A DNA stretch of 64,000 nt from Armillaria gallica (Eukaryota > Basidiomycota > Agaricomycetes > Agaricales > Physalacriaceae), in the NCBI GenBank assembly GCA_037576215.1, contig JBANDB010000021.1:620001-684000 (forward strand), read 5' to 3'. Of this stretch, positions 2,400 to 60,451 are shown in pieces (the first letter of the stretch is position 1; each line of letters opens with the position of its first letter). The notes below the pieces were generated by a model. It worked only from the letters and a program-made list of their open reading frames with translations, did not search any database and was not told the origin of the DNA. A program made the translations under genes and the position numbers.

Positions 2400-3479
2400 C
2401 TAGTATTCTGAAAGAGAGCTGTCTATAAAGGGCATTTGTTTGGTTGTGTTGAATTCTAAGGTAAAACTTAAAATTAAGGGTCCTGGGTCGAAATGTCGCA
2501 CATAAGAACGAATCCTCGTTTCACTCGGACTCGTAATCACCCCATGTTCGTCGCTATCCTGCTCGATCGAAACAGCACGTGCGGCAAGGACAAAGTGCCT
2601 GACATTATCAGCCGAACTACCACTGCCAGCATTGGCCTGATTGGCACGACGCTGACAGCCGAAATTGGGGGGAAACTGTCCCTCCTTGCCTCCCCCTGGC
2701 CAGTAACAATTTTCCATGGTATGCTTGGTCTTATCACGGGCTTTACAGCCAGGGTTGCCGCATCCACGGGTATGGGTATGGGATCTGGCAGCAAGTGCAT
2801 GAGACTGCGCAGGACCCTTACCCGTGGCACGTAACGTAGCAGCATGGGTTTGGAGGTGAGAGATGATGTCTGATGAGGTAGGTAATGAATACAAGCTCGG
2901 GAGAATGGGCATCCAGTTGTCTGTAGGTAGGATTGAATGAATAATAATTCCTCGGAATTCCTGGTCACTGAGGGCTGTGCTGCGAAGGTCATTCACTGCT
3001 CGTCGTCGAGTCCGGAGTTCAGCAACGTGGGCATCTATGTCACTATTTCCATCAAACTTGACGGTGTTCAGCGCCGATTCCGCCTCGGATAGGGCCATAT
3101 CGGTTTTCTTCGCATGCTCGGCTATGATAGAGTCCCAGCATTCCTTCACGGTTCCGTCGGTCCTCACCCCTAACCCGATAGGGTCAAGCACGTTGAGGAC
3201 GATGTGCGAATGGGCGAGCTGATCGCGGAAAGTCCATTCATCCCAGGAAGGGTTCGATGAGTAGATTGGTGTTGGGTCAGGTGGTAAGGGTACTGTAGTA
3301 GGTCCACTCGTGGAGGTCGTTGGAGCAGTGGGACGGGGTATAGATCCTTCAACGTATCCCCACAAGCCCTTTCCTTTCAACAACTCAGTGAGCTGAAGTT
3401 TCCACGAGGCGTAGTTCTTCCCGTTAAAGTGGCTATTGGTATCGGGGAGTATAGTGACTCCCGTTGCGTTCGACGACAT
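2400..3479 (-). mobile_element. Copia-type retrotransposon gag-like ORF, orphan
   Basis: This single-exon ORF of 359 residues resembles Ty1/Copia gag polyproteins (UBN2-type) that are common in mushrooms. Near the N terminus is a FNGKNYASWKLQL segment, the usual 'W-K' gag motif. The middle is helical with acidic and leucine-rich stretches. Around residues 240-275 is a cysteine/histidine cluster followed by ENCYWPGGGKEGQFPPNFG, a knuckle-associated block I associate with Agaricomycete Copia elements. In full elements an integrase/RT/RNase H polyprotein follows, but none is visible downstream (plus-strand positions below 2400), and I see no clear LTR pair. This is therefore a truncated element or a domesticated gag. 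The frame itself is intact, so a functional host gene cannot be excluded. Confidence 0.7.
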
Positions 3480-5525
3480 GTTTAGGGGTTTGACGACGAC
3501 GGTGGGGAGATTGGTGATGGTACGGTGGGGTGTGTAATATGTTCAAGTGAGTCGGTATTCGCTGCGTATCCTTTTCGACTGGCTTAGAGGCTATGGGGCA
3601 ATATAACCTAATAGAAGAAGGATATAAGTAATAGCTGCGAAGGAGCGTAAGTAATAGTATCAGATATCGTAAGGTATATACATACCTCAGTCGGGCACAG
3701 CGATGGTAGAAACGACTGAGGTATGCGGGTAACTACGGCCAGACTATATAGGTGATCAAAGGACAGGAGGTTGATATATAAGGTAAGAAAGAACGAGTGA
3801 CAATCGAGAGTAGATAGAAAGTAAAACATACGGGTATATAGTACGGATATCCTCCAACAGCTACGGCTATGTGACAAATAGTACGATCAACGGTGTCATT
3901 CGGCGGCGCTGCAATCGTTCTCGAGGATAGCTTCTTTGGCAAGAGTAACCCCTACCATAACTGGATGACGCACTGAAGGAATGGGGATCATATTTCATTG
4001 ACCTGGACGTCGCTCGGTACAGGAATACAGGCGTGTTGTTCGACTGGCCCAAAATTTATTTGGCCATAAAGTCCTTCAACCACGTAATCCAAGAACAAAT
4101 CCTGCACAGCAACAAGTGTAGGATCAGGTGTAACGAGGGCCACCACCAAATCTGTGCAATGGATACCGTTTGACAGCTCAATAGCTTGTCATCTGTGCTC
4201 ATGCCTGTGCGATTCACAGCAGATACCGTTGCCTCTCCCCAAGGATCACCTACAAGACGTCAGGATCATAATCCGCGAGAAAGGCACTACGATCGCCTAC
4301 GTTTACCATCGGCGAAGAACGGCCTTTCGTTTTTGACGTACCATCCGCCGTAGAGGCCATTGATGCTGTCGCTGTTCGAAATCAGGATCGTAGGAAACGC
4401 ATCCGGGAATTCGACGACGCACGACTGATTTATAAGTACGTCAGTTTTGTATCAGCGCTACAAAGTTACAAGACCAAATCCGTCACTTTCAACAGCATTG
4501 AGCCGCGAAACAACACCGCACCATCCAATAGGCGGTTCATCCTGGTGATATGTCAGTTTAATTTTACCGCAAAGGCCTAAGAGTACCCAATAGAGCTGGG
4601 TCGAGTTAATTACATCTATAAATGAACAATCCTTCAGGATGCAAAGTCTTCAGCTATAAGAACGATAGCAGTACCAACGGGATATTCGGCTCAGGAGCAA
4701 CTGTCACACTGGTGTCGGCGGTTGATGCGAAGATGTTAAACGTTAATTGGTATCTCGTACATTCTGAAAACAGAAATGACACTCACCAGCATCAACTGTA
4801 CTGTTTGTCGGCATTTAGCCCATGCGGAAAGTGCATGATCGACTCCCCATCCGCTTTCCGGCGACACGCTGTTCTTCACCTCAAGTGCGTCGCAGAATCG
4901 GTAGAAAGAAGCCCCCGAACCGGTAGTAGGCTGTAGCTCTTGCCACAACCACTGATACCATCTCACTGAAAGCGGTATTGGCTCTAAAAAATGAGGTTCA
5001 AGGTATTATGGCTGCAGGACCGGGGGAGACTCATCCTGCCATTGGCCACATTTCTAAGACGAGTTCATTCCGGTCTTGGCGTGGAAAATATTGACAGAAA
5101 AGTACTGGAGAAGTGACAATAACATACGGTAATAGTGAACGAACAGCGACGCGTGAAGTGCCGATCAGCCAGGCATGCCGAGGATCCAGGACAATATCAG
5201 CTTTGATCCATATTATGGTAAGCGACACGACCGAGCTCCCCCCCTGTGGCGTCCGTAACCCATAGCAGCCTCTCGCGTCGCCGCGTTCATTCCCGCTCAT
5301 TGTTAGAAGTTGTTGTGGTGACCATGACCCGAAATTTATTAAGTTACTTTGACAGGATGGTCAGCGAAAGTCGCCCACATATTCTGACAGCCAGATGGGC
5401 CCTGAAGACAAGGAAAAAGTCGCTAGCAAGTACACGCAAAGCACGCGCTCGTAGTGGTGCTTTGTTGTGAGTTATTATTATCGGACCAGGCCGCCTTCCT
5501 CTTTGGTTCTTAGCAATCTACCACC
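3480..5525. other. Intergenic; AT-rich, no supportable gene
   Basis: Apart from the hairpin at 3681-3725 I find only short contradictory ORFs. The stretch just upstream of the gag start could be residual element 5' sequence, since its base composition (many GTAA/TATA words) differs from that of the host genes. Confidence 0.4.
3681..3725. repeat. Perfect 13-bp-stem hairpin
   Basis: The 13-base word at 3681-3693 is the exact reverse complement of 3713-3725, with a 19-nt loop. It lies about 200 nt upstream of the gag-like ORF start on the minus strand. It could be an RNA hairpin in an element leader or a small palindromic insertion. Confidence 0.7.
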
Positions 5526-18871: not shown

Positions 18872-20195
18872 ACAGGCGAGGGACTTAGACACTAGGAATT
18901 TATAAACGAACTGTTCTCACCCACGAAGTAAAGAAGATACTATTGATCACCTAAAAGTGCAACCGAAAATGTTGACCCGCAACATTCTCATCAATTCTGA
19001 GTTGCTCCTCTAGATACTTTGTAGATCTCACCTTTATATTCATTCCAGGAAGTCTTGAATTTTTTTTGTTGTTAACGTCATGGCCGGGAAGTGCAACTGT
19101 GACGGGATGTGACCCGAAATGCCGATACTGCCGGTGCACTCCGGAACACCGTAATCGCAACCAAGCCGTGATCGGCTCAATCGCGGAACCGCTGAGCTTG
19201 TCACGCTGGATTACGCTTCTAGCTTCGACGGCATGTGCAGACTTCACTTTGCCTCTGATCCGGTTGATTTTTTCTCTTGAAAGACTCGAATAATACATGC
19301 CAAGCTTGTATCAAAAATTCAGAGCTGCGCAATGCACCAATGCATTGATATCAGGCAAGAATATGATGTGCAACTCATTTTTGAGTCAATTAGATACAAT
19401 GCAGAAATTCTTGATTATAATTCTCTACACTGAAGGCCAATCTAATGTACTCTGAAATAAATTTACAGGGGGGACAGGTCATAATTGCGGCTTTTATCTA
19501 CAGAGGGCTTTTAGGAAGGATTGAAGCCAATTGCGAATCTGGATCTGGATCTGGGGCCCAAGAAACTGCCGCCAGAGTGGGGTAGGAATCTGGAACGGGA
19601 ATCGAAGTGGTCTGAAGGTCACCCTGAATAGTAATAACTGCATCTAGTAAGTACAAGTCGGCGAATCAAAACCTTGACCTACCAAACGTCAATATCTTTT
19701 TGAAATCTGTGTGACCAGTGAGTAAGACATGCAAGCCAAGAGAAGCAACGTACTTGACCGCGTTCTCGAAAACGATGCCGAAGATGAAAATTTTCCATCG
19801 AGATGGGGTTCTGTCTACGTTTATTCGCCGCCTTCATATAGCCTTCATCCCAGCTTTATTTGAGTGTAAATGTAACAGCCGCTATCATCGAATACTGGTA
19901 TAAAAAATGAAATGGGTATGCGAATTGTTATAACATGTAGCAACATCAAGCTGACTGTAAGAAGGATACCGCATGCTCTTGTTTTCTGTTCAGCATGAAT
20001 GTTGCGTGGACCAAGCGTGGACACTGGACAACCGTTTTGGACGTGCGGCAAGGGCGGCAAGCGTGGGAATGATGAAACCGATCACGTGGTCAATATCAGT
20101 GTAAACAGCCGACAACATACCTCGTGAATCCCATTTCCGACACTGATCTCATCTTCCTTCCCTTCCCCCATCTCCTTCCTTCCCGTGCTTCCTGG
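18872..20195. other. Intergenic, no supportable gene
   Basis: Short contradictory ORFs only. A minus-strand ORF at 18951-19298 has no recognisable motif and no paralogue in the window. A CT-rich stretch directly upstream of 20196 is typical of a fungal core promoter/5' UTR. Confidence 0.45.
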
Positions 20196-23100
20196 ATGGT
20201 CCACCGTCCAGCAGACTCACGCCTTCTCACCAATCTTCTATCTCAGGAAAAGGACCACTCGAAACAGCTGCAATCCCTTCTGGATAGCTCAAATGTCGCA
20301 TTGACATCACTGGCGGCGTATGCATCGGCCTGCCCACCGCCCGCGTCTCAAGTGATATTGTCGGTGGCTGGATCGCTGGCAGGTGCGGCGGAAGCGTTTC
20401 GTGCGTATGCGGTGTCGATAGAGCAATGGCGCGACTATTTGACCGGGCTGAAGGACTTGGAGGACGAGGTGGCTCATGTAATGCGAGACAGGGAAATTCT
20501 GTGCGTATTTCAATGATTCCTGGTATCTATTATTATATGTTTCTATGCGGCGGCGGTGTTGCTTTACAGCTCGACGTTCGCCGCAACGTATGTGGCGGCG
20601 CTCATTACCCCAAGTACCCTGGGCTGTTGCACGCATATATCCATCTTTTTCTTGATTTTATACCCAAGATGCCATCTTATATTCTGCAGATGCTGACTTG
20701 TCTTACTTTAGCGTAACCCGTCTTATAAAGGCTTCCAAGTCTGTCACCAAGTCCAGCAGTAACCGCGAGTCCCTCCTACTTAGCCCCAATACGAAATCGT
20801 CGTCTACCCTTTCCCTCAAATCCGATGAGAGTCCGTCGATGTCCTACACTTCTTCGCCGACATTTCTTAGCCTTGGCGCCAACAAGAAACTACAGAATGC
20901 ACAGGCAGAACTTCAGGCATGCGAGGCTCACCTTGCAATGAAGGAGAAGGAGCTGGACGTGAAACGCTTCGGGGCTGTTCGAGACGGGCTTGCTGTCCGG
21001 TCCAAAGCCTTGACTGACTGCGGCTGGCGCTGGGTAGAGATAGGAAAACAAGTCGACAGTGTTTTGAACGAAGGCACCGGTATGTTACCTGTGCACAGAC
21101 TTTATATTTTTACTGACTATGCAAACAAGCTCGTTCTCCCAATGACAAGCCGCTTCCTCCGTCTTCACCAGGGGAGCATCCTTCCTCCGATATCTCCTCC
21201 ATCGCTCCCTCACAATCCGCTTCCCAAATCAACGTCATAGTTACTCCGGATCCCGTACAGCACATTTACTCCAACCTCGATATGCCCTCGGTCCCGTCTA
21301 CCCCTACTGATCCTGAAATACCACTGCAATTTCAAATACCGCCGGCCCATGCGATCGCTGAGACCGGCTTGCCGCGTGCAAGTAGCCCTCCGCCTATTCA
21401 GAAACACGTTCTTCCGCGCCGGATCACCGAGGAGGACTTGGGTTTCCGAAGTGGGTCTCTAGGAAATCCAGAGGAGACGAATAGCAGTGAGGAGGATGAG
21501 GGCAATGTTCAGGTTGTCGAGAACGCGAGATTCGCTGCATCGTCGAGCAAGATGTCCATTGGCTCTGGCAAGAAGCGAAAGGCACAGAGCACCCCGACAT
21601 CGCCTACGGGAAGTAGCGGTGGTGGTGGTAGCGGCTTTTTTGGGAGCATCAGAGGGCTGTTCAGCCGCCACGGTCATAGGAAAGCGGGGAGCGAGCATGA
21701 TGTGGAGAACGAGGGCGATGAGACACCCACGAGAGGAAGACGAGGCATTAAAGCATGGGATACACGGACCGCGAAGAACATCAAAAAACTCGATGTCCAC
21801 GAGTCCTATTCAAGGTCGCCAATCCCACCACTCCCTGCTATGCCTTCTCCTTCTACGCCAACACCCAGACCTCGTGCCGCGAGTGATACAGTGGGTTCGA
21901 GGAGGCTGAAGAAAGGCCGTGGCGCCGCGAGGAACCAAGGTGATCTCAGCGAGGCAGAGCTGAAGAAGCGCCGACGGAGCACGTCCCTAGATAGAGGGAT
22001 CGTCGATCTTTCTATCGAAAGGGCGGAGGAGTGGGTTGATGGCCAGCGAGAGACGGAGACGGAGGATAAAGGATGGGCGAGTGATACTGCTACTGCACCA
22101 CCAAAGAATGTGAAGAGGAAAAAGTCGAATCGCAAGTCTATGCCCAACGGGACCGTGAAGAGACCAGCTGAAATCAGTACGGATACTATGCATACCGGGA
22201 CAGGATCTGCTGCGATGTCGCCGAGTCTGTCGAGGAATTCGTCGCTGATGAGTGCTTCCAGTGCCCCGGCGCGATTACGCGCTACATCACCCTCGAACAT
22301 ACCTCCTGTCCCTAAGGCTCCGGAGCGGTCTTCTTCGGTTATCGTGCACAAGAAGAGAGCTAGCCTGGATGACGGATCCGGGACAGGTACCAGGAGGCCT
22401 TCGACTACGAAATCTGAACGACGAGCGAGTTCTCCGGTTGGCGCTGGTGCTGTCATGGGAGAAGGGAGCGTCAGTCTCATGAGCATCGTGGAAGACGTGG
22501 CTAGGGCGAATCGGGAAGGATGGGCGGCGTCTGATAAACGCCTGAGCGTAGGAGGTACCGTCAAGCCCGCTGCTCTGATGGATGTCAAGGCTCCGACTAA
22601 TCCTACTGTGAAGGAGTTACGCCGGATGGAGGCGGAAAATGGGACTCTTCCTACTTCAAGAGGAAGGAAGGAGACTGCGATTCCGATTCCGACAGCTCCC
22701 AAGTCGGTATTCAACGAGTCTGGCTCTGGGTTCGATCCTAATAAGATGGTGCAGCCCTCTGCGCCGGTGATCGTGGCACCTAAACCGAGACCGGCTTTGT
22801 CGCCTCTGCGTAGTGCGTTGAAGAGTCCGAGCAGGACGCCTTCTCCGATGCCTGGCCGTCCTCCATCACCACCACCCGCCGTGGCTTCTTCTCCACCAAC
22901 AGCAGTCAATGGCAAGATGAATGGATATGATGACGACGCTGCATCCATCTCGTCGTACGAGACTGGCCATGAGGTGTTCGAAGTAGATGACCCTTCCCCT
23001 CCTCCTCCCCCAAAAGATCCCGCTTATGTCAACCACATCCACGTTGGTTCAGACCTATCTGCTTCTTCTAATGCGTCAACGGAGACACCCGGACCCCGGC

Positions 23101-23333
23101 GACGGAAGAGCGTGAGAGTGGCGTTGCAGCCGACGTTCTCCACGACACCCCCGGCTATCGATTATGACGACGAGGCACTTTGGGCAAGGGCGAATGGGGA
23201 AGGGTGGAAGTCGAACGTGGACGAGGAGAGGGACATGTGGGCGGATTCGAGTGATGAGGATGTTGAGTATCAGAGGGCTAAAACGCTGCTTAATAGAGCG
23301 GCAAGGCGGGAGAAGAAGAGTCGGGGGGAGTGA
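20196..23333 (+). CDS. BAR/IMD-like domain protein with long disordered tail (Ivy1-like)
   Basis: Exons 20196-20500, 20712-21079 and 21130-23333 join in frame to 958 residues. Roughly residues 1-225 are helical and heptad-like (LLSQEKDHSKQLQSLLDSS; AVSIEQWRDYLTGLKDLEDE; KKLQNAQAELQACEAHLAMK; GWRWVEIGKQVDSVL), the arrangement of BAR/IMD coiled coils that bind curved membranes. The remaining 700 residues are disordered, rich in Ser/Pro/Lys/Arg, with nuclear-signal-like basic runs (VKRKKSNRKS), proline-rich stretches that could bind SH3 domains, and a conserved-looking acidic/Trp C terminus (ALWARANGEGWKSN). By family analogy it may be a cortex or endosomal membrane scaffold comparable to yeast Ivy1. 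That is inference. The start is the first ATG in frame (MVHRPADSRLL). Confidence 0.65.
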
Positions 23334-23888: not shown

Positions 23889-26800
23889 TCAAACGTTATT
23901 GACACTCTCGAATACCCAGTTCTGCCCTTCACCAGCACCAGCTTGTGCGAGAATAATCTAAAATAAAGTCAGGTATAGCCAGATTCTCGAGTAGAAGCTC
24001 TCACATTGTCATCGCTATCCACACTCCAAACCAAATCCGTGTCAATAAGACGAATCCTGCAAACATGAGCATGAATCAATACAGTAGCATGCAATTGAAC
24101 TTACTGAAAAGTCTGCATATCATCAGAGACAAGGCTCCATGAATTGGTCACCTCCAACGCTGCTAAAGACCTTGTCCCGATTACCCTTTGGCCACTCACG
24201 ATCGGCCAGTCGGAGCTCGCATACGACACATTCTTCAGTGTATATAAAAACTCCGATCCTGTGATATTCCCCAGTTCCCACTACCAAAAGATCGGTCAGC
24301 ACATGGCAGAGTAACTGGTAAGAATATTCCTCACAGCCTGATCATTCAGACCTGACGGAACCACCACGAGCGGCGTACCATCAGTTGAATCTCCACCTTT
24401 GATAGTAGCAGATGCGCTAGCCTTGGTATTGACCAAACGATACCTTCCTGGGTCCGGAGTTCCAGCCGTTGTCTGGGTGGTGACTCGTGCAACAAAGGGT
24501 GGGAACTCAAATGCTACCCATACATCAAATTTCTGCTTCTCTGGATCGCCGCTTCCTGCGAGCCATGCTAAAAAACAGGATCATCAGCTTGACAGAAGTA
24601 TATAAATACCAATACTCACCATGCCATGGGTAGTCCACCGTCCTATTCTGTCTGAATAGCGGCATTCCATCCGCGCTTGTCCTCCACAATGGACCATGTT
24701 CTGCCATACTAGGCACTACCACGCTCGAGTACTTGTCCTTTTCCGGCTTTGCGGGATCAAAGTCTGCATCCGGTACTGTTGCCCAACTCATCCCTCCCTG
24801 GCCAGTGCCGTTCACAAGACACGCATGGATCTCTGCAAACGTGTCCCCGATATGGTTGTGGAATCCAGCGGAGACATTCACTCCTGCCGTCCAGAGCTGG
24901 ATGTGACAGATAGACTCGGCAGAGTCATCTGCGTAGCGGACATGGAAGCCGATTAGGTTGTAAAATTCAACGCCCTGATAAGAGCCACATGAATTGATGC
25001 TTGCAGGCTAAAAACGTATGTACTGACCTTGAATCTTCCGTTAGCCCAAGGTCGATCTTCTACCTTGACCCACGGAAATGACATGTGCCGAACTGTGCCT
25101 GGGAAGCGAAGTGGAAATAGATTATACGCAACAAGTTGATGCATATCTGTGAATGGCGGTTTGCCAGAAGTAGTAGATTCTTTTATGAGAATAAGTACTG
25201 CCCCTTCGTTGCGGGTGAAAATGCTGGCATCTATCGAAGCAATGGTGATAGTCCTCGACTCAAAAGGAGCCGGGGCCTGGGTGCGCTCATGTGCTTTGCC
25301 GTCTCCATCTGTCCATAGAACTGAAGAAGAATTAGATGAGTAAGCTCAGAGAAAAACAATTGACGGACCTCGCCCAGCGATGACTTTCACACCTTCACCC
25401 GGTTGGACCGGGTATCGGGAGAGAGGAGGAATGACAACAAGAGCCAGTTTACGACCTGCTACATCTAGAAATTCCACTTCATCTGGAATATGTATTGTGT
25501 TTGGGCGAGGAACACGAAACATGACTTCGTTGTCAATCCTTTCCGCTGAGATAGGCGCAGCTTCATGCAAGAGAATCAGCGGAACAGGCGACTCAAAATA
25601 TCCAGGAACCGAGTATGAAATCGTCGCAAAATCCTAATTATCGTTAGTAGCAGCCCCATAGCGTAGCCAAATCAACAAACAAGCATTTGGGGTGACCGGA
25701 AATTGGCCACAGCAACTCTTCCAGCCGAAACGTCACCGAGTTTGAACTTGGTGAACACTCCGTTCTTCAGATCAACAGCTGAATATGTTCTTAGTAAATA
25801 TTGTACTGTCAAAAGAGAAATTAAGCGGCATACGTTTGTAGCACCATACACCTGTCCCATCCCAAGAAGGAGGATTGGACCCCATCATCGCTACCAGAAA
25901 CTCGTCGACACCGTCTCCATCAATATCGACACACACAACTTGGTGGATCGACCCTGAAAGTCCGTTGCTGGGTATAGTGTAATTGTCTAAGACGTGGCGA
26001 GTCCACTGGACATCAGCAGGCTGGTTAGGGGGTGCGTTTTCATCCTTTACGTATACAGAAACGAAATGACCGTGCATTGCCTACGTGCTACTCTCAGCAC
26101 AAGGTAGGATTGAGCCATCGTATATATGTACTGACCTCAGATGACGCAATATATCCCGCGCAATCGTCGTGAACCTTTCCGACAGAAACTATCAAACATT
26201 AATAGTGTCCCCGAGGATACCAGAGAAAGAGGGCTTACCACTGCCAGATCCCCAATAAGGATCCCCCGGAATCTCAGGAAGACCTTTTCCAAGTATCTTG
26301 TAGTCCCACTTCTTCGTACTGGCATCGAACCACAAGAAGCTTATTCCTTCCCGACCGGCAAGCATTATTCGATCAAGACCACCATTGGGAGAAGGGACAA
26401 CTAAAAAGACAGCGGCGATTAATATCTGGAAAGAGATCCTCGAAAGCGGACAACGTACCAACCACTTCATGAACTACGCGAAATAGATTATCGAATGGGA
26501 CGTCTTTCTCCCACTCTGATGCAGACATAGGATCGTCGGGTTTCGTGTAGATAATAACGGGGACTGGAGTGTCGAGATCATCCGAACCGGTGATGACTGG
26601 GAGGGCGGCAATTTGGATGACGTCCTGTCGAGTGAAGTGTCCAACTGCGTCGAGGATGAGTTAACATAGTTATGGTATAACAAATTGGTATGCATTTACC
26701 TCTGATACGGTGCATACCGGGGCTCTGACCAATGAACCTAGGTTCCCATTGCTCCTTGTTGGGATCTCCGGTGTTCTCGAACCATTGAATGCGGCCACCG

Positions 26801-27291
26801 TCAGGCCAGATGTCGCTCATAGAAGGGCCATATCTATCTGCAACGATGACTAAGAGAAGAGTATCAGTCGGTGGTGATACAGGCAGAGCATTCTAAAAAG
26901 ACGAACCATCATTGTAGCCATTCCCACTGATGTCCGCATACCTTAAATCACAAGTCAGTATCCGAACATCTAGAACATATGGAATGTACACACGCCATAG
27001 GCACGGGAAACCAGAGGGAAGCAAGGATCACCTCCTTCCAGCCCCGACTCTCTGGTGGTGATCTGGATATTGCGTTAGGCCCGGCAGCATACAACAGCAA
27101 GAAACGAACTCGTTTTCAGAATTGTACGGGTTCTGTAACATAACAATGTCGCTTTTCCGGTCAGTTGTTCCAAGACCATAAGCAATGACGTTGGGGTTCA
27201 GCTCGTCACTGGTGGCGCGAAAAGGGAACTTCTCAATCCAGTATCCATCGTCGACAGTGTAATCGATGATGCGGGGAAAGAAACGATGCAT
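23889..27291 (-). CDS. Aldos-2-ulose dehydratase-like protein (propeller plus cupin)
   Basis: Many short exons read in frame from ATG 27291 to TGA 23889. I traced most but not all junctions, and the product is close to 900 residues. The first half has FG-GAP/VCBS-like propeller repeats: YADISGNGYNDVIVADRYGP, then ALPVITGSDDLDTPVPV, then CVDIDGDGVDEFLVAMMGS. The second half has cupin-type metal ligands in GFHNHIGDTFAEIHAC (H-x-H...E-x-H). A C-terminal beta-trefoil/lectin-like stretch has QAWELGNITGSEFLYTLKN and ends near AGAGEGQNWVFESV. This order (propeller, cupins, lectin-like tail) and the length fit fungal aldos-2-ulose dehydratase, which dehydrates glucosone towards cortalcerone and 1,5-anhydrofructose towards microthecin. 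Its position head-to-head with pyranose 2-oxidase, whose product it uses, supports the call. No signal peptide is seen. Confidence 0.8.
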
Positions 27292-27834
27292 AGTGAAGGA
27301 ATGTCAACTTGTATTGCTGAGATCCTCTTTTAATAGTCCACAGTAAGGAATAATAGTCGGAAAACGAATACAGTGTAAACGGCCATTGTCCGAAAATGTC
27401 TGTAAGGACTTTGCTGCGAACTGACAATTACTCGTATGACAGCTGGTTCTAAGCATTGAAGCAAGATCTTAGGTAAGAGCCGTAAGATAAAGGGTGCTCG
27501 TGAATGAAACAACTGCGAGGCACCTTGTAGCAATTCATTTGGATGACAGGAAAGCTGGCTTGGCTGTAGCACGAGTTCAGCGTTCTCAAGTTCCATACAG
27601 AATGAAACAAGGGATTACCCCATTCCGGAGTAGATTCCTTGCAACAAATCATGGTAGAAGTTCAAGCGCTCAGGTGTAAAGACGGAGATCATAGAGGCGG
27701 AAATGAACGGTGTTGAACACGTGACCCTGATTGGTACCAGAAGACCCGACTTCCGGATCGAACTTGATATTTCATTGCCTACCCGTAAGAACGACTCTAT
27801 GATACCCATCGCAATTAGTCTATTGTTTAATGCC

Positions 27835-27858
27835 GGGGGGGGGGGGGGGGGGGGGGGG
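27835..27858 (+). repeat. Homopolymer run of 24 G
   Basis: Twenty-four consecutive G residues lie roughly in the middle of the shared promoter. Such a tract can form G-quadruplex structure and is length-unstable. Assembly length error is also likely. Confidence 0.9.
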
Positions 27859-28189
27859 TTTACTTGCAACCGTGTTATTACAAAGCATGACATAATTTGA
27901 TTGCCGTCCATCGGCACTACGCCAAACCGAATTGCATTTGAGGATACCGGCGGCAAGTTTAGAGTGCCGATTCCAAGCCGGTCAGCGCGTCTGGATAGAA
28001 AATAATGCATGTACCACCTTCCCCTTCATGATAAATTCATTTTATGCGATAAGAGACGTTATATCATGAATACATAGCTTTATATAGCCTTCAAACACAT
28101 CCAAAGACAGCGAATAAGTCAGTTACGCGCGGCCGGCTTTCCATCAAATTAGTAATAACTGGGTTGCAAGGCAGATGGCCCGATTAAGC

Positions 28190-28260
28190 AACAGACTACA
28201 TACAGACCGTCCCTCCCTTCCATCAATAGGTCTGTATCGTTGTCTGTCTACGAGAGACTA
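28190..28260. repeat. Hairpin repeat, copy 1
   Basis: About 71 nt similar to 60381-60451. A 9-bp stem pairs 28200-28208 with 28229-28237 around a 20-nt pyrimidine-rich loop, and a shared GTCTGTCTACGAGAGACTA block follows. The stem differs from copy 2 by one G-C to C-G swap that keeps pairing. Confidence 0.7.
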
Positions 28261-28787
28261 CATCGCAATACCGATCATGCACTAGACCTCACCGAACTTG
28301 AAGCCACACACCTGACTTCATATTACGGTCTCGTTTGTATCTTCAAGTTCGCGTCTTGCGTTTTCCGGGTTGATCTAAACCTCGATATTACTCTTCTTTC
28401 CGAGAATCAAGGCGACGGCTGACGATATTTGTCTTCTATGCTACACATAGAATGGTTCTCCAACTTTGACGAGCAATTCAATACATCCTTTCGCTGTTCC
28501 TTGCGTTCCACTGTCGACATACAAGGGTTGGAGTTACGTTCTTCGACAGAACTCACCTGCTATGCAAAATATTTGCAACCGGTGTTTTGGATATCCGGAA
28601 CTATACAGTGCTGGAACGCTGTGAAACCGAACATCTTGGAATGCTGTACGTTAGATACTGCCTCAGGTGACCGTGATCATAAGAGTGAGCATCGAGTCTA
28701 TATATTTAAGCAGGGCGCATTTCTATCCTCTTATCATCCTACCCTCTGTATCATTTCCTCCATTGCCTTTAGTAGCTCACTTTCACA

Positions 28788-30902
28788 ATGGCTCCAACTC
28801 GTTTGTCCGACGCAGACATCCAGAACTTGCTAGCTCAGCTTCCCAAAGATAGGAATGCTACCTCTCTCAAGTCGTTTAATAACGACCCTACGTACGAAAT
28901 TCCTATCCACCGCACCGATGTCTTTATTGCTGGAAGTGGTCCCATCGCTTCGGCCTACGCTCATACCATCATCAATCAACACCCCACTGCCCGAGTACTG
29001 ATGGCAGAGATTGGCGCTCAAGATAGTCCAATTATTGGTGCTCACCAGAAGAACGCGGTCAAGTACGTTGCTTCTCTTGTCTTGCGCGTCTTACTCACTG
29101 GTCACACAGATTTCAAAAAGATATTGACGCGTTTGGTAGATCGAAATTTTTATTCGTCGACTTGTACTTACTACCTGCAGTTCATACTATTCAGGGCGCC
29201 CTTCAGACCACTTCGATTCCTGTTCCAGACTCCTACCAACCCACTCTGGCGGCCGCTTCTTGGGCCCCAGATTCTGACTCACAGCTTGTAATCAATGGCT
29301 TCAATCCTTCCCAAAAGCCCTCTGTAAATCTTCCCGCCAATGCCATCACCAGGACCGTCGGTGGAATGGCCACTCACTGGACTTGTGCATGTCGTACGTA
29401 TTCGCTGTCTTTCTACCAGCCTTCACTACATCTATTTTCAGCTGAGCCACACGCGGAAGAGAGATCCATGAATCCGATCCCAAACAAGGAACTCGACGAC
29501 CTTCTCCAGCGCGGCAAAGTCCTTCTCAATGTCCATACCGACCAATTCGATGAGTCTATTCGCCACGACGTTGTCAAGAACACTCTCACCGATGCATTTG
29601 CTTCTGATGCTACTCGCAATGTCGCTAATCTTCCCTTGGCTGCAGAACGTCGCTCAGACAACAAGGCATATGTCCACTGGTCTGGCACGGACACTGTCCT
29701 TGGCGGGGAAATCTCCAGTGGCACACATCCTCGCTTCAATCTTCTCACGGAGACTAAGGTTACCCAACTTTGCTACCTGGGAACCGATATTCGTGCTGTT
29801 GTAATCCACGATTTGAAGGCTGATCGTCATTCAAGCGTTCAACTCGTCATTGCCAATGTACGCCGTTCCGATACTACATGCATTTACATATTACGATGCT
29901 CATGGTATGCACAGGCCTATGTCATCGCTTGTGGAGCTGTCTGCACACCCCAGATACTGTGGAACAGCAACATCCGTCCCAATGCTTTGGGTAGGAACCT
30001 TAGCGAACAGTCTATTGCCTTCTGCCAGGTAAATACTACGGCTTCGACCTTTTTTACCGCTGACTGGCTCTAGATTGTTCTCAAACGTAGCATTGTTAAC
30101 GATATCTGGACCAATCCCAACTATAAGGAAGCAATCGACCGTCATCAGGAGAAAAATCCTTGTGATCCCCTACCGATTCCATTCCATGATCCTGAACCTC
30201 AGATCACAATTCCCTATACTCCCGACTACCCATGGCACACCCAGATTCATCGTGACGCGTTTTCTTACGGTGACGTTGGTCCCCGCTCTGACCCCCGTGT
30301 CGTGGTCGACCTTCGCTTCTTCGGCAAATCTGACATTTCTGAGGAGAACAGAGTTTGTTTCAGCGATGAACACACAGATATCTATGGCATGCCACAGGCC
30401 ACGTTCTATGTTGAACGCACTGAGAATGATGCTGAACGTGATCACAGGTGAGTAGGAGTACCATTAATCAAGTTCCTATTGCTCACCGCACACCGCTATT
30501 AGGATGATGAACGACATGACCAACACTGCAAACTTCCTCGGCGGCTACCTTCCCGGGTCCGAGCCCCAATTTATGGAACCCGGTCTTGCCCAGCACATCA
30601 CGGTAAGGCGAGTCAACTATTATCGCTGTTCCGTTCCTCATTCTCCTTTGAAGGGCACCACACGCATTGGTACCGACCCTGCGACATCTGTCGCTGATCC
30701 GTCCTCCAAGGTGCATGGTCTTAAAAACCTCTGGGTCGGTGGCAACGGATGTATCCCGGATTCGACTGCGTGCAACCCTACCCTCACCAGTGTAAGTGTC
30801 CCGCCTAATTCTGATATAAGGTACCTTAATTCTTCCTAGGTCGCTATTGCTATCAAGGGTGCGGAGTCTATCGTGAGATATATCATGATGCGAGCGGAGT
30901 GA
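28788..30902 (+). CDS. Pyranose 2-oxidase (GMC-type flavoprotein)
   Basis: Nine exons: 28788-29062, 29110-29135, 29181-29393, 29442-29857, 29915-30028, 30074-30447, 30503-30602, 30654-30791 and 30840-30902, giving 572 residues. The FAD-binding start is [18 protein letters not shown]. The flavinylation motif is [12 protein letters not shown], with the histidine corresponding to the one that links FAD covalently in Trametes enzymes. The catalytic pair near the C terminus is visible: His in [14 protein letters not shown], and Asn in [15 protein letters not shown], within the GMC signature following [11 protein letters not shown]. The enzyme oxidises glucose and other pyranoses at C2, giving 2-keto sugars and H2O2 (or reducing quinones). 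It is about 50 residues shorter than the Trametes enzyme. No signal peptide is seen, matching the unusual secretion of this family. A 26-nt exon 2 is notable. Confidence 0.92.
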
Positions 30903-31596
30903 AACGGCGAATGAATCCTGAAAGCTGAGAGTCGTCTGTCGTCGTGTAAACAGTGACATAAGATGCCAAATTCCAATCATGTATGAATCGAACCCATACC
31001 AGAGATACTTTTTTGTTCTTCGTTTCGCACCAAGTAGCTGTTATGTGGACTTCCGAGTACTACACAGCTAGTAGTCTGGCGGGCTTGAAGGCAATTGCTC
31101 ACTATTCGAAAGTGGCGGCTGTTACGTTTACGGTCTACTGGTCACATAAAGGTGGGATGAAGGTTATATGAAGGTGGCGAATTGATTATAATACGTAGGC
31201 AGAACGCTATCCCGGCGTCTTCGGCGTCATTTCCGTCGACTGCTGGAGTCGTGATCGAGAGAATTTCGCAGAAAGCAGTCTTCGTCGCTAGAAGCTATGA
31301 ACAGCGGTGATGCCTGCTTCGAGCAGCCTCAGGGTAAGGTTAACGGTGACTTTGCCCCGTTATCCTTGGCTAGAACGTCATGAGGCAATTGAATCCCGCG
31401 GCTTCTCCGGAAGGCATAGTTTGGCCGTCCGCCATTGGTGTTGGTGTTGTTGGTTAGGTGACTGGATGGCTTTAAGAAACCTATATTTCGAGTTCCAGGG
31501 ACGACATTAGATGTGCGAGCAAAAATAAATTATTTCAACGAACAGCAGTAGATTTGCAGTAGATGTATAGAAATGCAATGAGATTGGCAGTCATAG
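30903..31596. other. Convergent intergenic spacer
   Basis: This lies between the 3' ends of pyranose oxidase (plus) and the mannosyltransferase (minus). Only short ORFs without motifs are present, probably 3' UTRs. Confidence 0.45.
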
Positions 31597-33054
31597 TCAC
31601 GCCTCCATAAGTCTATCCCACCTCCTTAGACATGAGTATCCATCATAATCTAAAACCCAGTCAGCGAGTTCACATCGAGAATCCCAGCGTGGCTCACCGA
31701 AACTCTTCTTCTGATCACAAGAGCACTTGCCCCGTCTCCAGCTCTCCTCTTTCCTCGGGCAATGCGTATACGGATTATGCTCGTACCCAATCTCATCGAA
31801 GAACTGCAGCTGGTCCTTCCTCGCAAACAGCGACGCCGCGATACTATGCACAGGCGCATCGCCCCACCGCTCATAATAAAACCCACCTCTGGAGTCCAGA
31901 TACTCAAAGAACGCCTGGTACGCCGGCCCGCGCCAAAAACTCATATCGGCGATCTCAAAGTTACTCCAGACTGCCCGGTCGTTAGGAAGCGGGAAAGAAG
32001 AGACAAGTGATATGACGCACAATGACATAAATTGTAATTCAAGCCTCCGTTATCAGACTGGAATCCCATCGCGTTATCCTCGACGACGTACTCGGGATGC
32101 CGGTCCACAAAATCCCTGACGTGACCCCATAATGTGGGAATAGTCCGCTCGAATTCGTACATGGTAATCGTGAACGCGTAAATCTTGTTGTTGTCTTCCA
32201 TGAACACAAACGGATCAAAGTTGACGTCGCAATGGAAATGGACGTTCGGCCTGTCAACACGTCAGAGGTCACCGAGAACGGCTGCGTTTGAGGACGTACT
32301 CTACTCTCCAGTACCATCGATACTGCTCCATGAGAGGATGTTTGAAGAAGAAACCGGAATTGAACCGGCACATATTGCGATAGGAGACGCTGCCTGCGAT
32401 CGTCTCCTCATGAGCACAAATAAAATGAAATAGCGAGCCGCGCACCTCCATAGATGACATTTTCAGTAACCATCTGGTCTCTCGACGCCTTCGCCCTTTC
32501 CTCATCTATCCAATCCGGCTGAAACCAGTGTTCACGCGGGATCAAGCCAAATTCCATTTTCGACGACGTTATCACGGACACTCTCCTACAAAAAAAAGTT
32601 AGAAGGTTCCCCTCGATCCCCCCTCATATCAGCGCACCTCTTAAAGTCCTCCGTGAACTCCTCTTCATTCAACAGAACGTAGGGGTAGTTGTACTGTCTA
32701 TTAAACCGATCCTCGATCTCGCGAATGCTTCCAATTACTCCTTGGAGATCGGTGTTGCGTGCGAGGATGACAAACGTGGCATTCGCCCGCCGACCCTGGA
32801 CTGTCATGTTCGAGCTAGGAGCGAAATACTCGTCTGGCACGGGGAACAGCTCCGCAGCGGTCTCACTGCTTCCATGAAAGTGCGATACGATGTTATCCAA
32901 GGACGTTATACGTCCATATTCTTGGTGGGTAAAGGAGAGGATGTAATGGACACTGATCTAAAGATTTATTTAGCCATCCATGCTAGCCGAAGCGGGATAG
33001 CGTACGCACCACGACACCCAGAATAAGCAAAAGATACCGCGCCGTCGTATTCAT
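31597..33054 (-). CDS. GT15 alpha-1,2-mannosyltransferase (KRE2/MNT1 family)
   Basis: Seven exons: 33054-33006, 32920-32638, 32585-32446, 32393-32300, 32250-32021, 31970-31698 and 31649-31597, giving 373 residues, all GT-AG. It is a type II Golgi protein with a short cytoplasmic start and hydrophobic anchor ([19 protein letters not shown]). Glycosyltransferase family 15 blocks follow: [70 protein letters not shown], the donor/metal-binding region [30 protein letters not shown], and near the C terminus [17 protein letters not shown] with the family's conserved W-G-D-A-P-V-H. These enzymes add alpha-1,2-mannose to N- and O-glycans from GDP-mannose in the Golgi. Which of the yeast paralogues it corresponds to cannot be told. 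Confidence 0.92.
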
Positions 33055-59876: not shown

Positions 59877-60380
59877 GGACCTTCCTACTTACTTCCTACT
59901 GCCTAGTTCATGGATATGCTCAAGTTAGTCTTGTTTTAATCGCGCCCCCTTGTTATCACCGTCGACGCCGTTACGTCAGCTACCATACATAGAAGGACTT
60001 TCCCATCACTCTTTGAACCAATACTACTGTGTTCGCGTCGTTTCTCTTTGCTCGTCTCATTGAATGATGACCCTATGACTCAAACTCTCTCATGAAACAA
60101 TCAAGAAGGCATGAAAATTGTTAACGATACTGTTTCAAAGCAAATACCAAGCTGAAAGGATGGTCAGGCTATTTCAAGAGCAGCCGCCTATTCATATTCT
60201 CAATGGCAGATATGACCTTCTATGCACTGTCACCAGTCATGGAAGTTAGGCTCTAGTCACTTCTCTGCACGAAAACGCGCGGCTTTGGATAGAAACGCGT
60301 CAGTAAATTGACGTGTTGGCGGTGCATGTGATTCTATTACGTAACGGATCCGTCCGTGATAACGAGACCCCCCAGATAAA

Positions 60381-60451
60381 CAACAGACTCATACACACCG
60401 TCACTCCCTCCCTCCATAGGTGTGTATCGTCCGTCTGTCTACGAGAGACTA
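60381..60451. repeat. Hairpin repeat, copy 2
   Basis: Second copy of the 28190-28260 element. The 9-bp stem pairs 60391-60399 with 60419-60427 (ATACACACC/GGTGTGTAT) around a 19-nt loop and is followed by the same GTCTGTCTACGAGAGACTA block. Confidence 0.7.

What the first reader, a model, noticed from the sequence alone, without database searches (positions are those of the whole stretch)
23889..30902. Divergent pyranose 2-oxidase / aldos-2-ulose dehydratase pair
The two enzymes catalyse consecutive steps (sugar to 2-keto sugar plus H2O2, then dehydration towards cortalcerone/microthecin-type pyranones). Here they lie head to head with a 1.5-kb shared promoter. The individual enzymes are known. 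A compact two-gene module would imply co-regulation and a defined antibiotic-type secondary pathway in this fungus.
Basis: partly seen in the sequence, partly recalled or inferred. Interest (0 to 1): 0.75.

Follow-up and report, generated by a model that had tools for sequence, protein, structure and literature searches.

The report
Divergent sugar-oxidase and dehydratase gene pair
A honey-fungus (Armillaria) chromosome carries two back-to-back genes that should turn glucose into hydrogen peroxide and a small antibiotic-type sugar derivative; this pairing was already known from other wood-rot fungi, but distant bacterial versions of it look new and worth testing.

Summary
A 16-exon aldos-2-ulose dehydratase (AUDH) gene (27291-23889, minus, 874 aa) and a 9-exon pyranose 2-oxidase (P2O) gene (28788-30902, plus, 572 aa) lie head to head, 1,496 bp apart. 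Both models are free of lesions, match the solved P. chrysosporium enzymes over most of their length, and keep the key catalytic residues. The host is an Armillaria close to A. gallica. [quoted passage not shown] I add three things. First, the same genome holds a second, decayed head-to-head pair and a relic of a third on another contig. Second, Armillaria AUDH and P2O trees split into two clades that agree for 5 of 6 contigs carrying both. Third, bacterial homologues of the AUDH propeller without cupins lie in tight same-strand arrays with a pyranose oxidase and an IolE-like TIM barrel in 8 of 80 loci; I found no description of this in the papers searched. Co-regulation and product are inferred, not shown. 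Verdict: new member of a known kind; modest interest, with a stronger bacterial lead.

The parts
23889..27291 (-). Aldos-2-ulose dehydratase/isomerase (AUDH, pyranosone dehydratase) gene, 16 exons, 874 aa
   Evidence: model; PDB 4a7k E 1.2e-283; PF18637, PF22301
27292..28787 (.). Shared intergenic (putative bidirectional promoter) region, 1,496 bp; holds a poly-G run 27835-27858
   Evidence: promoter function inferred
28788..30902 (+). Pyranose 2-oxidase (P2O, AA3_4) gene, 9 exons, 572 aa
   Evidence: model; PDB 4mif E 9e-124; TIGR02462 729.1 bits, cut-off 544.9
26710..26712 (-). AUDH His142, equivalent of P. chrysosporium AUDH His155 (proposed catalytic base; that role is recalled)
29375..29377 (+). 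P2O His166 of THWTC, aligned with a position that is Ala in entry 4mih (flavin-linking His; role recalled)
30594..30596 (+). P2O His504 (catalytic His of the GMC His/Asn pair; role recalled)
   Evidence: alignment
30774..30776 (+). P2O Asn547 (catalytic Asn of the pair; role recalled)
   Evidence: alignment

Best explanation
The locus is an intact two-gene metabolic module. P2O oxidises D-glucose (or a related pyranose) at C2 with O2 to glucosone and H2O2. AUDH then dehydrates the 2-keto sugar, probably at its propeller site, and isomerises it, probably in its cupin part, giving cortalcerone (or microthecin from 1,5-anhydrofructose). The two genes probably share a bidirectional regulatory region. 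Shown: gene structures, family membership, conserved catalytic residues, linkage, and the same divergent orientation at the other two places of this genome. Inferred: activity, product, division of labour between domains, co-regulation, antibiotic role.
For: Models without lesion; similarity to solved enzymes over most of the length; P2O above the NCBIfam equivalog cut-off; propeller and cupin Pfam models; key residues kept. Second divergent pair on contig C10 (P2O-like plus 1400881-1402922, AUDH-like minus 1398942-1396201) and a relic in which an AUDH tail (minus) abuts P2O middle exons (plus) near 1389033. Trees of both genes split Armillaria into two clades that agree for 5 of the 6 contigs carrying both genes. 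Of 22 AUDH rows whose species also occurs among the 120 listed P2O rows (of 668), 14 share the identical longest-contig length with a P2O row. Published adjacency and cortalcerone suggestion (PMC4256170, passage); glucosone to cortalcerone by pyranosone dehydratase in a subset of P2O fungi (PMC7910265, passage).
Against: No expression or metabolite data. 8 of the 22 rows do not share a contig length, and equal length shows neither distance nor orientation. The two intergenic regions of this genome show no blastn similarity except about 44 bp upstream of the AUDH start, so no conserved shared promoter element was found. A. ostoyae falls with different clades in the two trees (AUDH with the window type, 97/98; P2O with the C10 type, 81/80). 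The C-terminal lectin domain got no Pfam hit.
Confidence: 0.85

Rival explanations
1. The main job of the pair is H2O2 supply for peroxidases; AUDH is there to drain reactive glucosone, and the pyrone is a by-product rather than an antibiotic.
For: P2O is usually discussed as a peroxide source (PMC4256170 and PMC11650716, passages).
Against: A dedicated 874-aa dehydratase kept beside P2O suggests the 2-keto sugar matters; not decisive.
Confidence: 0.35
2. The physiological substrate is 1,5-anhydrofructose (from glucan lyase, or from 1,5-anhydroglucitol by P2O), giving microthecin, not cortalcerone.
For: AUDH takes both substrates (recalled from Claesson 2012; only its citation was seen here).
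Against: The linked enzyme oxidises free sugars at C2, pointing to glucosone; no search for a glucan lyase was made here.
Confidence: 0.15
3. The adjacency is only shared ancestry; the 1.5-kb gap is large and the genes are regulated separately.
For: No conserved promoter block between the two pairs of this genome beyond about 44 bp; three Armillaria P2O rows (P0072, P0077, P0136) share no contig length with any of the 71 AUDH rows.
Against: Linkage in several other fungi and decay of both genes of the C10 pair.
Confidence: 0.2

Closest known systems
P2O / pyranosone dehydratase gene pair of Phlebiopsis gigantea and other wood-decay fungi (PMC4256170)
   Same: Same two enzymes, immediately adjacent, same suggested glucose-to-cortalcerone route
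   Different: Orientation is not given in the passage read; here the host is Armillaria, with further decayed copies
Phanerochaete chrysosporium P2O (PDB 4mif, 4mig, 4mih)
   Same: Family, flavin-site motif, catalytic His/Asn
   Different: 572 aa here against 620 for chain 4mif_A; several stretches shorter
Phanerochaete chrysosporium AUDH (PDB 4a7k, 4a7y, 4a7z)
   Same: 52% identity (row P0027); propeller plus cupins; His155 equivalent kept
   Different: 874 aa against 900; shorter N-terminus; C-terminal part weakly conserved
Bacterial P2O - IolE-like - AUDH-propeller arrays (L077-L079, L087, L090-L093; this work)
   Same: A pyranose oxidase linked to an AUDH propeller with the same four histidines
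   Different: Propeller without cupins; same strand; a TIM-barrel gene in between; GH15-type gene upstream in five of eight
Bacterial C-glycoside 3-oxidase clusters (PMC10646112, passages)
   Same: P2O-like oxidase next to CarB/CarC-type deglycosidase genes
   Different: C3 oxidation and C-C cleavage; the word 'dehydratase' does not occur in that main text

Membership tests
Pyranose 2-oxidase (AA3_4, TIGR02462) | Score above curated equivalog cut-off | tested here: met
   729.1 bits against 544.9
Pyranose 2-oxidase (AA3_4, TIGR02462) | Flavin-linking His in THWTC | tested here: met
   His166; aligned with the position that is Ala in 4mih; role recalled
Pyranose 2-oxidase (AA3_4, TIGR02462) | Catalytic His/Asn pair | tested here: met
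   His504 and Asn547 aligned with 4mif; role recalled
Pyranose 2-oxidase (AA3_4, TIGR02462) | C2 regiospecific oxidation of glucose | not testable with these tools
   needs enzyme assay
Aldos-2-ulose dehydratase/isomerase | Propeller and AUDH cupin domains | tested here: met
   PF22301 and PF18637
Aldos-2-ulose dehydratase/isomerase | His155 equivalent and conserved histidines of propeller and cupin | tested here: met
   His142, 204, 282, 325, 621, 630 present; the role of His155 is recalled
Aldos-2-ulose dehydratase/isomerase | C-terminal lectin domain | tested here: inconclusive
   PDB alignment reaches chain residue 853 of 900 but no Pfam lectin hit
Aldos-2-ulose dehydratase/isomerase | Zn-dependent dehydration of glucosone | not testable with these tools
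   needs enzyme assay
Known P2O-AUDH linked pair | The two genes immediately adjacent | tested here: met
   published precedent

The most novel reading that the evidence does not exclude
The oxidase-dehydratase partnership is not confined to fungi. Some bacteria (seven Streptomyces loci and a Dehalococcoidia MAG) carry operon-like arrays of pyranose oxidase, IolE-like TIM barrel and propeller-only AUDH homologue, in five of eight with a GH15-type gene upstream. This would be a minimal, split form of the fungal pathway, in which the propeller alone is the dehydratase and the TIM barrel replaces the cupin as isomerase (or is a second dehydratase). The pair would then be an ancient or repeatedly re-formed functional unit, relevant to the published idea that fungal P2O came from bacteria (PMC6509819, passages).
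Probability: 0.5. Interest if true: 0.65.

Novelty: new member of a known kind. Interest (0 to 1): 0.35.

Why it matters
For the window itself, it places a known peroxide-plus-pyrone module in Armillaria, a genus of wood-rotting tree-root pathogens, and shows that such pairs have duplicated and decayed as pairs. The bacterial arrays, if they do what their neighbours suggest, would give AUDH a minimal, easily expressed single-domain form and could tell which domain performs which half-reaction, a question left open by the two-site crystal structure (recalled).

Tried and rejected
I first read the ACA codon in HITGTTRIG as loss of the P2O catalytic His. The alignment with 4mif shows the conserved His is the one in HITG, so there is no loss.

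The first exon-by-exon lesion count of the C10 pair used wrong end-gap settings and is discarded; one search replaces it.

The greedy longest-ORF calling of bacterial loci put genes in wrong frames at high GC; one search uses codon-position GC, still missed some genes, and key genes were fixed by tblastn. Start codons of bacterial genes are uncertain.

No larger biosynthetic cluster was recognised: the downstream neighbour (31600-32957, minus) matches glycosyltransferase family 15 and the upstream ORF (21117-23330, plus) has no Pfam hit (only 10 ORFs of the window scanned, some of them single exons).

Papers: de Koker 2004 (PMC522120) is not held. Nine searches, several with capped lists (25 of 291; 20 of 2,340; 20 of 138; 15 of 53; 11 of 14), gave one report of the fungal linkage (passage); none of the papers I opened describes the bacterial array. 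Main-text finds in PMC10807413, PMC9916811, PMC9659204 and PMC6581175 gave no hit for dehydratase, operon or gene cluster. PMC11650716 gave none for operon or gene cluster. Subscription papers are mostly not held, so absence is not proof.

Negative results: three further actinobacterial P2Os (L117, L118, L119) and one distant Chloroflexota homologue (L116) have neither the TIM barrel nor the propeller in their 1.5-kb flanks. In three genomes with a propeller but no linked P2O (L021, L051, L030) no P2O was found at E 1e-40. The propeller tree does not make the P2O-linked bacterial propellers sister to the fungal ones; that label needs 3 changes (at least 2 forced by starred branches). Five of 104 rows were left out of it (L099, L100, P0002, P0018, P0029).
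Full report
WHAT IS THERE. Two intron-rich genes without lesions lie back to back. The plus-strand gene has 9 exons (28788-30902) and encodes 572 aa; all eight introns are 45-57 bp with GT..AG ends. The minus-strand gene has 16 exons (27291-23889) and encodes 874 aa; all 15 introns are 47-58 bp with GT..AG ends. They are separated by 1,496 bp.

IDENTITY. The plus-strand protein matches solved fungal pyranose 2-oxidases (best 4mif, E 9e-124) and passes the curated TIGR02462 cut-off (729.1 against 544.9 bits). The flavin-linking His (166) and the catalytic His/Asn pair (504, 547) are kept (roles recalled). The minus-strand protein matches P. chrysosporium aldos-2-ulose dehydratase, its only PDB match at E 0.01 or better (4a7k, 1.2e-283, residues 4-836), and carries both AUDH Pfam domains. 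In a 24-row alignment most of its propeller and cupin histidines are invariant or nearly so (325 and 698; 142, 204, 282, 604, 621, 630, 673). His142 aligns with PDB His155, the residue proposed as catalytic base (recalled from Claesson 2012; here only its citation was seen).

HOST. The best protein relatives are Armillaria: AUDH 97% to A. gallica, P2O 94% to A. nabsnona. The assembly has 86.0 Mb in 28 contigs. I take it as A. gallica or a near relative (inference).

OTHER COPIES IN THE SAME GENOME. Contig C10 has a second divergent pair: P2O-like plus 1400881-1402922 and AUDH-like minus 1398942-1396201, 1.94 kb apart. Against the window exons, the P2O-like copy shows 8 non-triplet gaps and 2 in-frame stops over the aligned parts. 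The AUDH-like copy shows 6 non-triplet gaps, lacks most of exon 6 and has no convincing exons 14-16; the 3 in-frame stops counted in it lie in poorly aligned exons 6, 15 and 16 and count for little (some gaps may be alignment noise at 62-86% exon identity; one exon under 40 bp in each gene was skipped). A relic 5.9 kb from that pair (1388454-1390304) joins an AUDH tail (minus) to P2O middle exons (plus) near 1389033, so both 5' halves and the shared region are missing; it is 87% identical to the second pair over 3.97 kb, 3' flank included. The window pair is the only intact pair found in this genome: P2O hits lie at these three places plus a fragment in the window, AUDH hits at the three places only (only the best candidates are scored, so counts are lower bounds).

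RELATIVES. Trees of 18 AUDH and 20 P2O proteins both separate Armillaria into a window-type clade and a C10-type clade. Of 6 contigs that carry both genes, 5 fall in matching clades; the sixth is A. ostoyae, whose P2O joins the other clade with weak support. Of 22 AUDH rows whose species also appears among the 120 listed P2O rows, 14 share an identical longest-contig length with a P2O row; A. gallica has consecutive locus numbers (ARMGADRAFT_1076420 and _1076421), and four of the shared contigs are under 70 kb. For one of the 14 (P0023) the species name is cut off and inferred from the contig length. Eight rows do not match (P0001, P0007, P0012, P0015, P0026, P0038, P0059, P0064), some of them possibly because cluster representatives come from different strains. 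These figures suggest linkage; they show neither distance nor orientation.

LITERATURE. PMC4256170 (passages) states that the P. [quoted passage not shown] The finding as given is therefore an Armillaria instance of a known arrangement.

BACTERIAL EXTENSION. A scan of genome contigs (one genome for each of 84,980 bacterial and archaeal species) matched 160 stretches, of which 100 encode AUDH relatives; the best 80 were kept. The matches cover the propeller part of AUDH; the furthest (L030) ends at residue 483, a short way past the start of the cupin model at 421. Of the 80 extracted proteins 77 are 388-477 aa, the others 209, 499 and 919 aa, the last looking like a run-on in L072, so there is no room for the cupin part. 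The histidines equivalent to 142, 204, 282 and 325 are kept in 79, 80, 80 and 79 of 80. In 8 of 80 loci (L077, L078, L079, L087, L090, L091, L092, L093) a pyranose oxidase lies upstream on the same strand with a TIM-barrel gene in between. The P2Os of L078 and L091 pass TIGR02462 (616.4 and 549.4 bits against 544.9) and their TIM barrels pass TIGR04379 myo-inosose-2 dehydratase (346.5 and 320.5 against 290) (the other six loci were placed by tblastn only). Spacing is tight, about 0 to 80 bp between P2O, TIM and propeller genes, with an aldose-epimerase gene intervening in L078. A GH15-type gene is immediately upstream in 5 of 8 (Pfam in L087; the others by tblastn). Four more loci (L035, L076, L080, L089) have the TIM barrel without a P2O; three of them show weak GMC matches.

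CHECK FROM THE P2O SIDE. In 297 Streptomycetaceae genomes, 8 have a P2O at E 1e-60. Of these 8, 5 have the propeller, each on the same contig as the P2O: four about 1 kb downstream on the same strand, one (G022) 2.8 kb away and divergent. The TIM barrel is next to P2O in 6 of 8. G001 and G004 were reached through the propeller scan; without them the figures are 3 of 6 and 4 of 6. In 394 class-level genomes, 4 have a P2O at E 1e-100; the three besides G001 have neither partner within 1.5 kb. In 400 Chloroflexota genomes, 2 match: the starting genome and one distant homologue without partners in its flanks. Few candidates per genome were scored, so these are lower bounds. The association is far above what chance proximity would give (inference) but is confined to a subset of bacterial P2Os.

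HOW IT WORKS. Fungal pair: glucose plus O2 to glucosone plus H2O2 (P2O); glucosone dehydrated and rearranged to cortalcerone (AUDH). Family membership, residues and linkage are shown; chemistry rests on the characterised relatives; co-regulation and ecological role are inferred. Bacterial array: by analogy, GH15 releases glucose, P2O makes glucosone, and the propeller and TIM barrel dehydrate or isomerise it; none of this was tested. A rival is C-glycoside catabolism, because P2O-like C3-oxidases sit beside CarB/CarC-type deglycosidase genes in other soil bacteria (PMC10646112, passages).

VERDICT. Observation confirmed, interpretation partly supported, arrangement already described in other fungi. 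Interest is modest for the window, higher for the bacterial lead.

Noticed in passing
window 19496-19897, minus: Fragment of the P2O gene (281 bp at 87% identity to 29050-29329) preceded by a stretch resembling the P2O 3' flank (73% to 31100-31214): a rearranged, broken duplicate 9 kb from the gene.
   Followed up: partly
window 28185-28260 and 60377-60451: A piece of about 76 bp of the shared intergenic region recurs at 87% identity elsewhere in the window, perhaps a dispersed repeat.
   Followed up: no
window 27835-27858: Run of 24 G in the intergenic region; possibly an assembly-sensitive homopolymer.
   Followed up: no
window 2403-3542, minus: Copia-type gag open reading frame (Retrotran_gag_2).
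   Followed up: no
L077, L078, L079, L087, L090, L091, L092, L093: Bacterial arrays of pyranose oxidase, IolE-like TIM barrel and propeller-only AUDH homologue, with a GH15-type gene upstream in five.
   Followed up: yes
L035, L076, L080, L089: AUDH propeller with the same TIM-barrel type but without a pyranose oxidase; weak other GMC matches in three.
   Followed up: partly
protein hits P0051, P0054, P0055, P0057, P0060, P0063: AUDH-like proteins with propeller and cupin in bdelloid rotifers (Rotaria, Adineta), 35-38% identical: possible horizontal transfer.
   Followed up: no
   Followed up: no
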